A DNA stretch of 33,079 bases from positions 192,411-225,489 of the forward strand of contig NZ_AOJD01000027.1 of assembly GCF_000337415.1 (NCBI RefSeq), in the 5' to 3' direction. Position numbers and translations under genes: made by a program. This document shows, in pieces, positions 29,117 through 33,079 of the stretch. Origin of the DNA: Halorubrum tebenquichense DSM 14210 (GTDB lineage: Archaea; Halobacteriota; Halobacteria; Halobacteriales; Haloferacaceae). Position 1 is the first letter of the stretch, and every line of letters starts with the position of its first letter. The notes under the pieces were generated by a model, which was not told the origin of the DNA, ran no database searches, and saw only the letters and a list, made by a program, of their open reading frames with translations.

Positions 29117-29189
29117 CCGCGTTTCGGTAACGATTCGATGCGAGATCACGCGGGGCTGTGGCCAAGCCAGGCATGGCGACTGACTCCAG

Positions 29190-29290
29190 AGGCTCGCGCC
29201 CGGGACGACACTCCAGACTGATATACCGAGCGGCCGACTGATCATCGGTCGTGTTGACGACCCTCTGGAGTTCCGAGGCGCACCGGAGAT
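29190..29290 (+). ncRNA. tRNA-Trp intron acting as box C/D guide RNA for C34 and U39
   Basis: In Haloferax the tRNA-Trp intron is known to guide 2'-O-methylation of C34 and U39. Here both guides can be read. GACTGATAT (29216-29224) is complementary to 29289-29297, and CCGA (29226-29229) follows as box D', putting U39 (29292) exactly five nt upstream of the box. CTCTGGAGT (29263-29271) is complementary to 29183-29191, and CCGA (29273-29276) follows as box D, putting C34 (29186) at N+5. Box C' is TGACGA (29255-29260) and box C is probably GGACGA (29203-29208). The boxes differ from the usual UGAUGA/CUGA by matching C changes. Confidence 0.85.
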
Positions 29291-29304
29291 ATCAGTCGAT
29301 CGGG

Positions 29305-29326
29305 GGTTCAAATCCCTCCGGCCCCA
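29305..29326 (+). repeat. attachment-site copy within the tRNA-Trp 3' end
   Basis: The last 22 nt of tRNA-Trp (T-loop and acceptor 3' strand, beginning GGTTCAAATCCCTCC) recur at 29407-29428 with one mismatch (21/22). tRNA 3' ends are standard targets of tyrosine recombinases, and the DNA beyond is of accessory type. This copy would be the end that restores the tRNA. Confidence 0.65.
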
Positions 29327-29373: not shown

Positions 29374-29420
29374 GAGGGGTTTGAATCAGGGAGCGACAGC
29401 GACCGAGGTTCAAATCCCTC
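29374..29420. repeat. inverted repeat overlapping the second att-like copy
   Basis: GAGGGGTTTGAA (29374-29385) pairs with TTCAAATCCCTC (29409-29420), with one G-T pair in 12 and a 23-nt loop. The right arm belongs to the T-arm part of the second tRNA-Trp 3' fragment. An inverted copy of the T-arm so near suggests successive integrations or a recombinase-binding arrangement. Confidence 0.4.
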
Positions 29421-29428
29421 CCGCCCCA
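29407..29428 (+). repeat. second copy of the tRNA-Trp 3' end (att-like)
   Basis: Twenty-one of 22 bases match 29305-29326; the single change (G to C) is in the acceptor strand. There is no tRNA 5' half before it, so it is not a tRNA gene. It lies 102 bp after the true tRNA end and directly before the element's first operon. It may be an att site left by an earlier integration. Confidence 0.6.
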
Positions 29429-31108: not shown

Positions 31109-31429
31109 ATGGCTTCGAAGCAGCCTGCCCACGGCAGTAGCGCACAGTCAAAAGAGATCCACGTCGACCTCGTCGCGGAGGGGATCAGCGGATACCGCGG
31201 CCCACATCACGCGCTCGCGGTCGTCAGCGTCGACGCGAACTCGGCGCTCCGTATCGAGATCTCGGCCGCGAACGAGCTCGACTGGCAGCTCGACGCGCGG
31301 ATCGTCGACGGCTCGGTCGAGATCGGCCGGATCTTCTGCGAGGGTGATAGCGTCCACGACGACGACGTGCCGAACTGGGTCGAACGCGTCGCCGGCGTCG
31401 TCGGCGAGCGGCTCGACGGAGGTCCGTGA
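31109..31429 (+). CDS. 106-aa protein, unknown function
   Basis: An acidic, soluble 106-aa protein with alternating strands (EIHVDLVAEGISGYRG, HHALAVVSVDANSALRIEIS) and a closing amphipathic helix (VPNWVERVAGVVGERLDGG). No motif is recognised. A CACTAAACC box about 26-30 nt upstream suggests a leaderless start at 31109 and a separate promoter from the preceding operon. Its TGA overlaps the start of the methyltransferase gene, so the two are coupled. Confidence 0.65.
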   Translation: MASKQPAHGSSAQSKEIHVDLVAEGISGYRGPHHALAVVSVDANSALRIEISAANELDWQLDARIVDGSVEIGRIFCEGDSVHDDDVPNWVERVAGVVGERLDGGP

Positions 31430-32220
31430 TGGCGGACGCCGTCTTCCCTTATCCCGGCGGGAAGAGTCGCTTCGCGTGGTGGATCCTCGACCACGTCCCC
31501 GAGCACACCTGCCTCGTGGAAGTGTTCGGCGGCGCGGCCGGCGTCCTCGCGAACAAGGACCCGGACGCGAGCACGGTCGAGGTGTACAACGACCGCGACG
31601 GCGACCTCGTCCAGTTCTTCGAGGTCCTCCGCGATCGGTGCGACGAGCTGGTCGAGTGGCTCGACCGGACGCCGTACTCGCGGGAGCTCCACGACGAGTG
31701 CGCACACAAGTTCTTCAACGGCTACCGGCCCGCCGACCCGATCGAGCGCGCCGGCCAGTTCTTCTACCTCCGGTACACCCAGTGGGGCGGGAAGTACGAC
31801 GGCCCGGCCGGGTTCGGGACGTCGAAGGTCAGCGGTCGGGCGCTGTCGTACGCGAACAAGGTCGACCGACTCGACGAGTTTGCCGACCGGTTCGGTGACG
31901 TCGTCGTCGAGAACCTCGACTGGGCCGACGTCTTCGAGAAGTACGACAGCGAGGACACCGTGTTCTACTGCGACCCGCCGTACGTCGGCTACGAGGACTA
32001 CTACCTCGTGAACACGATCGACCACGGGGCGCTCGTCGACGGGCTGGCAGAACTGGAGGGCGACTGGATCTGCTCGTATGAGGATCTGCCGGAGGGGTTC
32101 GAAGATGTGTACGCGGTCGATCGCGACGAGAAACGGTTCATCAACAGCGGGAAGCGTGGAGAAGCGAAGGACGCGAAAGAACGGTTGGTGATGAACTTCG
32201 AGGCAAAGGGTTGTAACTAA
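31429..32220 (+). CDS. D12-class DNA adenine N6-methyltransferase (Dam-like)
   Basis: A 263-aa methyltransferase that transfers a methyl group from S-adenosylmethionine to adenine N6 in DNA. Motif order is that of the alpha (Dam/D12) class: N-terminal motif X PYPGGKSR (7-14), motif I EVFGGAAGVL (31-40), and catalytic motif IV DPPY (182-185, in FYCDPPYVG). The target recognition region lies between (about 70-150). No restriction endonuclease is seen nearby, so it may be an orphan or viral self-protection enzyme. ATG 31429 overlaps the previous TGA by one base; GTG 31426 is an alternative start. The target sequence cannot be predicted. Confidence 0.9.
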   Translation: MADAVFPYPGGKSRFAWWILDHVPEHTCLVEVFGGAAGVLANKDPDASTVEVYNDRDGDLVQFFEVLRDRCDELVEWLDRTPYSRELHDECAHKFFNGYRPADPIERAGQFFYLRYTQWGGKYDGPAGFGTSKVSGRALSYANKVDRLDEFADRFGDVVVENLDWADVFEKYDSEDTVFYCDPPYVGYEDYYLVNTIDHGALVDGLAELEGDWICSYEDLPEGFEDVYAVDRDEKRFINSGKRGEAKDAKERLVMNFEAKGCN

Positions 32221-32263
32221 CCCGATGTGCTGAGGGGCTTATTGGCCGTCTCAGTCCATTTTA
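32221..32263. terminator. T-rich intergenic stretch between convergent genes
   Basis: Forty-three bp between the methyltransferase and the AT-rich gene. CCATTTTATTATT across 32257-32268 is T-rich on the plus strand and could end plus-strand transcription in the archaeal manner. No hairpin is needed or seen. Base composition changes sharply here. Confidence 0.35.
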
Positions 32264-33025
32264 TTATTGATCATCAAACTCGGCAGCTGCGTCCTCTAGG
32301 AATGAGGCCATTACACTCGACCATTCTCTTCGCTGCGAATCGTAGAATCGTCTGATATCGTTATTTGTATAAAACATATCCTCTGTCTTCGCTAGTGTGA
32401 ATACTATTAAGTCAAGATAAACCTGTAACTCTGGATTCTCAATCTCCGCTTCTTGATACACCTGCCGGTAGAATGGATGCTCGTTGTTTAACGTTACATC
32501 CATTTGAGATCCTTTGTTCTTCATATCATAGAAATTACCACTTCCTAATGTTTCCACTTTTTTGTTAATATACTGGTCCCGTTGGAATTGGTCACGTATT
32601 GACTCAATCCGCTCTTGTTTTTCATCCTCTTTCAGGTCTGATTCTTGTATCTCCTCGATTTTGCGTTGCTTTTCGGATTCCTGTTTTTCAATGTCCTCTT
32701 CTGTGGGAGAATAAGCGCTGGGACGTAGTCGGTCTAGCGCTTTGTTTGCGATCTTTTCTGAGGTAGACTCACGCCCAACGTCATCCTTATTCAACTCTGA
32801 TCTCACGTCCTTACGTTCATCTTGTATTTCATTCCCCAAACTCGTTAGAACGCTTTCTAACCTTTCATCGAGCTTGTCACGGAGATTTGGATCCAGAGAA
32901 AATCGGCTCTTATTTGTTTGGACACCGAACTTTTCGTCTAATTCGGAGGGGAACCTGATTTCGGCTCTGAAATAGTTATACCGATTAGTCTTACGCTCTT
33001 GTGGCGGAGATTGTTGGTGAGTCAT
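32264..33025 (-). CDS. AT-rich gene: protein resembling the C-terminal part of GHKL/Hsp90-like ATPases
   Basis: A 253-aa protein, base composition near 40% GC by eye against well over 60% elsewhere. Residues about 14-55 (NYFRAEIRFPSELDEKFGVQ, then TNKSRFSLDPNLRDKLDERL) resemble the segment following the ATPase and transducer domains of GHKL/MORC-like proteins in defence islands. A long charged coiled coil (about 55-155) follows, then a helical domain (about 170-253). The ATP-binding motifs are absent, so the ATPase may be another gene or was lost. ATG 33025 overlaps the end of an upstream gene (ATGA). The frame is also open upstream to the window edge, so a longer protein is possible. Confidence 0.6.
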   Translation of the reverse strand: MTHQQSPPQERKTNRYNYFRAEIRFPSELDEKFGVQTNKSRFSLDPNLRDKLDERLESVLTSLGNEIQDERKDVRSELNKDDVGRESTSEKIANKALDRLRPSAYSPTEEDIEKQESEKQRKIEEIQESDLKEDEKQERIESIRDQFQRDQYINKKVETLGSGNFYDMKNKGSQMDVTLNNEHPFYRQVYQEAEIENPELQVYLDLIVFTLAKTEDMFYTNNDIRRFYDSQRREWSSVMASFLEDAAAEFDDQ

Positions 33026-33079
33026 AGCGCAGTTTCGAGGATGGTTTTGAGTGCTTCTTTCCCCGGTTTTCGGAACACT
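33022..33079 (-). CDS. C-terminal end of an upstream gene, partial
   Basis: The last 18 codons of an open frame entering from beyond the window, reading VFRKPGKEALKTILETAL and a TGA that overlaps the next ATG by 4 nt. The helical, amphipathic ending and the ATGA overlap fit a co-transcribed partner. It is too short to identify. Confidence 0.4.
   Translation of the reverse strand, partial: VFRKPGKEALKTILETAL

What the first reader, a model, noticed from the sequence alone, without database searches (positions are those of the whole stretch)
32264..33079. AT-rich cassette with GHKL/MORC-like C-terminal protein: possible defence system fragment
Composition drops abruptly at about 32221. The protein's early segment (FRAEIRFPSELDEKFGVQTN) resembles the region after the ATPase domain of GHKL proteins known from anti-phage islands, yet the ATP-binding part is missing. 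It is coupled by ATGA to an unseen upstream gene. Either a split two-gene ATPase system or a truncated defence gene lies at the window edge, and a tRNA-borne element is a usual place for one.
Basis: inference. Interest (0 to 1): 0.6.

Follow-up and report, generated by a model that had tools for sequence, protein, structure and literature searches.

The report
Transposon-cut stump of an archaeal defence ATPase
The reading frame at the window's edge is the back half of a MORC-like ATPase gene, cut by a jumping gene inside a spot where related salt-loving archaea keep swapping virus-defence genes, so it is a broken member of a known kind rather than a working new system.

Summary
In detail: GC falls from 0.64 to 0.42 after 32220, and a 253-aa minus-strand ORF fills 32264-33025. 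Codons 12-253 are 81% identical to residues 310-550 of an intact 550-aa GHKL ATPase in another haloarchaeal family. Homology starts at the first base after an IS1595-family insertion sequence (IS). The ORF's ATG and first ten codons are IS end, and the 'ATGA coupling' is the transposase stop codon. The ATPase half is found nowhere in this genome. The target-site repeat is missing, so an IS-linked deletion is likely. The window ends at an assembly gap inside the IS.

Intact orthologues are MORC/paraMORC-like ATPases with a HEPN-type (Ymh/TIGR02391) gene just upstream. A sister group has a convergent pentapeptide-repeat/K+-channel gene, often with DNA methyltransferases nearby.

The site is a cargo slot between a D12 methyltransferase gene and a wHTH gene. 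In other Halorubrum genomes the space after the methyltransferase holds Type I, Type IIG or Eco57I-type modification genes, HerA or other GHKL ATPases.

Verdict: the GHKL and truncated-defence-gene guesses are right; the split two-gene ATPase guess is wrong. It is a decayed member of a known kind. The slot and the ATPase-channel pair are the more interesting by-products.

The parts
32264..32993 (-). 3' remnant of a MORC/paraMORC-like GHKL ATPase gene (the codons for residues 310-550 of the orthologue), beginning within the predicted S5/transducer region
   Evidence: 81% identity to L050:8917-10569 residues 310-550; DNA homology begins at the first base after the IS; 54.5% identity to the Haloarcula rara protein
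32994..33079 (-). end of an IS1595-family insertion sequence (terminal repeat CGCTCTTGTGGCGGAGATTG... and 3' end of the transposase gene); the rest of the about 1.0-kb IS lies beyond the window (L009:3492-4495)
   Evidence: repeated at 7 other places in the genome, many at contig ends; transposase scores 151 against a cut-off of 75 for NF033547; end repeats match at 23 of 30 positions
33022..33025 (-). ATGA: start codon of the chimeric 253-aa ORF overlapping the transposase stop codon; both lie inside the IS
   Evidence: sequence
31429..32220 (+). D12-class N6-adenine DNA methyltransferase; the constant left anchor of the cargo slot, of virus type
   Evidence: PF02086 79 bits; phrog_56; conserved at 84-93% in eight other Halorubrum genomes, with homology ending at about 32201-32211 in each
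31109..31429 (+). 106-aa ORF conserved with the D12 gene as part of the left anchor
32212..33079 (.). part of the variable cargo slot seen in this window; the slot ends at L009:5205, just beyond a wHTH gene at L009:4838-5128
   Evidence: relatives hold unrelated cargo at the same place

Best explanation
The ORF is a pseudogene-like 3' remnant of a MORC/paraMORC-type GHKL ATPase gene. SHOWN: the gene once encoded a protein of about 550 aa. An IS1595-family element now begins at its codon 310 and supplies the start codon. The N-terminal ATP-binding half and the partner gene seen beside orthologues are not found elsewhere in this assembly. The site is a cargo slot that holds restriction-modification and other defence genes in related Halorubrum genomes. 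INFERRED: transposition was followed by a deletion next to the IS, since no copy of the flanking target sequence is found at any other IS end. INFERRED mechanism of the intact system: the GHKL-S5 module binds ATP and dimerises as a DNA-responsive clamp. On meeting foreign or incorrectly modified DNA, it releases or activates a separate toxic effector encoded next to it (a HEPN-type Ymh RNase in this gene's own clade), which stops the infected cell. In this genome the system should be inactive. Any 253-aa product read from the IS start codon would lack the ATP-binding fold.
For: 81% identity, homology starting exactly at the IS edge; HATPase domains in full-length relatives; MORC2, MORC3 and SMCHD1 are the best sequence and fold matches of the full-length protein; ATPase half and Ymh gene absent from the genome; IS1595 element, its copies, duplicated assembly ends; three sister copies have 8-9-bp target repeats, this one has none; Ymh/TIGR02391 gene directly upstream of the GHKL gene in both intact members of this clade; Ymh is a HEPN family, reported fused to paraMORCs in R-M neighbourhoods; cargo slot with defence genes in relatives.
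Against: The assembly is a draft and this very junction rests on a scaffold gap, so a missing 5' half could in principle lie in unassembled sequence. The remnant has no stop codon or frameshift, so recent truncation or retained function cannot be excluded. Neither AlphaFold model is reliable (mean pLDDT 56 and 57, five-sequence alignments), so the fold of the remnant itself was not shown. No activity is known for any close relative.
Confidence: 0.88

Rival explanations
1. The IS-driven 253-aa chimera is a working protein, for example a dominant-negative or partner-binding C-terminal fragment translated by re-initiation at the transposase stop codon.
For: The fusion is in frame, the start codon overlaps the transposase stop (ATGA), and there is no internal stop in 242 codons.
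Against: The ATP-binding half and the partner gene are missing. An in-frame fusion happens by chance in one insertion of three. No other genome was found with the truncated form.
Confidence: 0.06
2. A split two-gene GHKL ATPase system, with the ATP-binding half encoded by an upstream gene.
For: ATGA overlap with an upstream gene.
Against: The upstream gene is an IS1595 transposase. All intact relatives are single-chain. The N-terminal half is absent from the genome.
Confidence: 0.01
3. The scaffold join is wrong and the GHKL 5' half lies next to another IS copy on a different contig, so the gene is interrupted but both halves survive.
For: The junction is a one-N scaffold join, and no target-site repeat matches across it.
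Against: tblastn of full-length relatives over all IS-flanking contig ends found only the known 3' part, and the whole-genome search with the N-terminal half found nothing. Both flanks of the join are the two anchors that border the same slot in three relatives.
Confidence: 0.05

Closest known systems
paraMORC GHKL ATPases of restriction-modification neighbourhoods (Iyer, Abhiman and Aravind 2008, PMC2292703)
   Same: GHKL domain with the N, G1 and G2 motifs, a predicted S5 domain and a C-terminal extension in full-length relatives; DNA methyltransferases adjacent in H. aidingense and Haloferax mucosum; defence-type location
   Different: the window copy has lost the GHKL domain; I did not assign it to paraMORC 1-5 by a tree; no SFII helicase next to the haloarchaeal copies
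paraMORC-Ymh (HEPN) proteins proposed as analogues of PrrC/RloC (Anantharaman et al. 2013, PMC3710099)
   Same: a Ymh (PF09509/TIGR02391) domain together with a MORC-like GHKL ATPase
   Different: in the two haloarchaeal loci the two are separate adjacent genes, Ymh first, rather than one fused protein
MZA system, MzaB ATPase
   Same: distant GHKL similarity of the full-length relatives (NCBIfam 44-47 bits; PADLOC 27.6-46 bits)
   Different: far below the curated cut-off of 850 bits; no Z1 or AIPR partners recognised next to the relatives
IS1595-family insertion sequences
   Same: transposase, zinc ribbon and terminal inverted repeats; 8-9-bp target repeats in three sister copies
   Different: this copy lacks a matching target repeat, which suggests an adjacent deletion
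defence cargo slots of proviruses and mobile elements
   Same: constant flanking genes with interchangeable R-M and defence cargo
   Different: an archaeal (Halorubrum) example bounded by a D12 methyltransferase gene and a wHTH gene; one library search showed no paper obviously describing it, but this was not an exhaustive check

Membership tests
MORC/paraMORC GHKL ATPase | GHKL (Bergerat) ATP-binding domain | tested here: not met
   absent from the window ORF and from the rest of the genome; present in all full-length relatives. So the window holds a fragment of a family gene, not a functional member
MORC/paraMORC GHKL ATPase | S5/transducer domain with a conserved basic residue | tested here: inconclusive
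   an invariant Q-T-N-K-S-R stretch follows the IS edge and is a candidate lysine loop; the structure models are too weak there
MORC/paraMORC GHKL ATPase | closest relatives among known structures are MORCs | tested here: met
   profile of full-length relatives: MORC2 best; fold search of the full-length model: MORC3 and SMCHD1 best (low-confidence model)
MORC/paraMORC GHKL ATPase | R-M or nuclease gene neighbourhood | tested here: met
   methyltransferase genes near two haloarchaeal relatives; helicase plus PLD-family gene beside a distant plasmid relative, helicase beside another; R-M cargo in the same slot of related genomes
paraMORC-Ymh (HEPN) system | Ymh HEPN domain with the Rx4-6H motif, fused or adjacent | tested here: not met
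   adjacent gene present in two intact orthologous loci (52.7 and 39.6 bits, cut-off 39.45), with RNPPHH/RNPPSH; not found in this genome
MZA defence system | MzaB at the curated score | tested here: not met
   44-47 bits against a cut-off of 850 for full-length relatives
IS1595 family | IS1595 transposase | tested here: met
   PF12762 69.4 bits (cut-off 27) and NF033547 151.3 bits (cut-off 75)
IS1595 family | terminal inverted repeats | tested here: met
   23 of 30 positions
IS1595 family | 8-bp target-site duplication | tested here: not met
   8-9 bp in three sister copies (CTGAAGAA, TTGACCAGA, TTTCAGGG); none at this copy
functional anti-phage defence system | protection against virus infection | not testable with these tools
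   needs an experiment with an intact orthologue

The most novel reading that the evidence does not exclude
The family to which the remnant belongs is a modular haloarchaeal defence system in which one MORC-like GHKL ATPase works with exchangeable effectors: a HEPN RNase (Ymh) encoded upstream in one clade, and in the sister clade a convergently encoded 712-733-aa protein joining pentapeptide repeats to a two-helix pore (K+-channel filter TTLGFGD/TTLGYGD in two of three), whose gene ends 2-8 bp from the ATPase gene in all three loci. A DNA-sensing ATPase opening an ion channel would be a new architecture.
Probability: 0.2. Interest if true: 0.6.

Novelty: new member of a known kind. Interest (0 to 1): 0.35.

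Why it matters
It shows how an odd orphan ORF at a composition break can be a transposon-truncated defence gene, and why a start codon and 'coupling' supplied by an IS should not be read as an operon. It also points to a recurrent Halorubrum cargo slot, between a D12 methyltransferase gene and a wHTH gene, in which new archaeal defence genes can be sought, and to intact orthologues in which MORC-type ATPases can be tested against haloviruses.

Tried and rejected
The family libraries gave nothing for the remnant itself: best Pfam 15.6 bits against a cut-off of 25, PADLOC LeoBC E 0.057, NCBIfam none. No relative was found by a single-sequence scan of genome contigs, in phage records or in viral contigs with the alignment. 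AlphaFold models of remnant and full-length protein were poor; the remnant model was therefore not searched, and only the best part of the full-length one carries meaning. The D12 methyltransferase as part of the GHKL system was considered and rejected: it is the constant anchor of the slot with quite different cargo in relatives. Virus records gave only short matches to the flanks, so no specific parent virus was named. Literature searches for a GHKL/pentapeptide-channel system, TIGR02391 with 'defense', and HalA gave nothing useful. A tRNA-borne integration with a second distant attachment copy was not found.

Full report
WHAT IS IN THE SEQUENCE. The window is C27:192411-225489 of a 93-contig haloarchaeal genome. 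The 253-aa minus-strand ORF at 32264-33025 is real as an ORF, and GC falls from 0.64 in the preceding D12 methyltransferase gene to 0.42 in the ORF.

THE WINDOW EDGE IS AN ASSEMBLY JOINT INSIDE A TRANSPOSON. The last 86 bases (32994-33079) occur at seven other places in the genome, many of them contig ends. Beyond the window there is one N, and the same 86 bases are repeated after it. What follows is a transposase of the IS1595 family (PF12762 69 bits; NF033547 151 bits, cut-off 75). The other end of the element is joined in the same way (N at L009:4496, 86-base duplication). The ends are inverted repeats (23 of 30 positions). The ORF's ATG overlaps the transposase stop codon (ATGA) inside the IS, so the start, the first ten codons and the apparent coupling belong to the IS. 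The gene remnant is 32264-32993.

WHAT WAS CUT. A search of 170 genomes of the family and 391 of the class found full-length relatives in only four genomes besides this one. The closest is L050:8917-10569 (550 aa, another family): 196 of 241 residues are identical, aligned to its residues 310-550, and the DNA homology begins at the first base after the IS. Between the two, third codon positions differ at 152 of 243 and first and second positions at 60 of 486, the mark of past selection for protein sequence. A complete Haloarcula rara genome carries a further one, 54.5% identical to the remnant. All full-length relatives have HATPase_c_3 and HATPase_c domains in their first 150 residues with clear N, G1 and G2 motifs. 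A profile of them finds MORC2 first among solved structures, and the full-length model, though of low confidence (mean pLDDT 56), finds MORC3 and SMCHD1 first. The N-terminal half is not found in this genome, nor near any IS end examined. Three sister IS copies have 8-9-bp target repeats, but the sequence left of this copy (TTAGTCTTA) has no partner at any right end. An adjacent deletion is the simplest account; it is inferred, not shown.

WHAT THE INTACT SYSTEM LOOKS LIKE. In both intact members of the remnant's own clade (L050 and L051) a 320-322-aa gene lies directly upstream. Its C-terminal domain is TIGR02391/PF09509 'Ymh' (52.7 and 39.6 bits, cut-off 39.45), with RNPPHH or RNPPSH matching the HEPN Rx4-6H signature. 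Ymh is a HEPN (predicted RNase) family and has been reported fused to paraMORC ATPases in restriction-modification neighbourhoods, proposed as analogues of PrrC/RloC (PMC3710099). MORC and paraMORC proteins as a whole were tied to restriction-modification systems by PMC2292703. In the sister clade (Halorubrum aidingense, Haloferax mucosum, Haloarcula sebkhae) the ATPase gene instead converges on a gene for a 712-733-aa protein of pentapeptide repeats followed by two hydrophobic helices and a pore loop (TTLGFGD, TTLGYGD; degenerate in the third), with 2-8 bp between the stop codons. N4/N6 DNA methyltransferase genes are adjacent in two of these. Distant plasmid relatives stand beside a helicase, in one case with a PLD-family gene as well. 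Ymh is also not found in the window's genome.

WHERE IT SITS. The genes left of the remnant (106-aa ORF and D12 methyltransferase) are conserved at 84-93% in eight other Halorubrum genomes, and homology stops at about 32201-32211 in every one. In three of them the right-hand flank of this genome's IS (L009:5206 onward) reappears after 7-10 kb of other DNA, with a wHTH gene 39-48% identical just inside it. That supports the scaffold join. The DNA after the left anchor differs in each: HerA ATPase plus methyltransferase (L147), a double-HATPase protein plus Eco57I-type methyltransferase (L148), a C5 methyltransferase plus two PDC-M33A-like genes (L150), Type I restriction R and S subunits (L152), a Type IIG enzyme plus an HKD/SNF2 helicase (L154), and genes without a known family (L149). 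For L150, L152 and L154 the right anchor was not reached in the stretch read. This is a defence cargo slot. The flanking genes are of virus type (PHROGs).

HOW IT MOST LIKELY WORKS. The intact protein would be an ATP-driven GHKL-S5 clamp that senses DNA state and controls an adjacent toxic effector, an RNase in this clade. That mechanism is inference from family knowledge and gene order. In this genome the ATP-binding half and the effector are gone, so the remnant is most likely inert.

VERDICT. The split-ATPase option and the meaning given to ATGA are wrong. The finding itself is a decayed member of a known kind. The ATPase-channel pair and the cargo slot are the parts worth following.

Noticed in passing
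L038:8434-12240; L039:5520-9376; L049:6630-10510: Convergent pair of a MORC-like GHKL ATPase gene and a pentapeptide-repeat/two-helix pore-loop (K+-channel filter) gene in three haloarchaeal genera, stop codons 2-8 bp apart; possible new defence pairing.
   Followed up: partly
window 32212 to L009:5205; L147-L150, L152, L154: Cargo slot after a D12 methyltransferase gene (right anchor, a wHTH gene, seen in three relatives) holding different restriction or defence genes in different Halorubrum genomes.
   Followed up: partly
L038:16020-18926: 968-aa protein in Halorubrum aidingense joining an N-terminal GHKL-type ATPase to a C-terminal N4/N6 DNA methyltransferase, near the GHKL/channel pair.
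   Followed up: no
L148:8784-13028: Protein with two HATPase domains and a neighbouring possible response-regulator-like protein beside an Eco57I-type methyltransferase, reminiscent of the HEF_HK/Response_reg_2 set of PMC8011034.
   Followed up: no
window 29152-29326 and 29407-29428: Intron-bearing tRNA-Trp gene (missed by ARAGORN without introns) and a 22-bp copy of its 3' end with one mismatch about 80 bp downstream; no third copy in the genome.
   Followed up: partly
G000 contigs C2, C3, C4, C12, C17, C18, C19, C27, C36, C37, C77, C80, C81: At least seven copies of the IS1595-family element break the assembly; three have clean 8-9-bp target repeats, while several ends have no partner, suggesting IS-linked rearrangements.
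   Followed up: partly
L040:4392-9448: A second, more divergent GHKL homologue in Halorubrum aidingense with an integrase gene and a 348-aa pentapeptide-repeat/channel gene within 3 kb.
   Followed up: no
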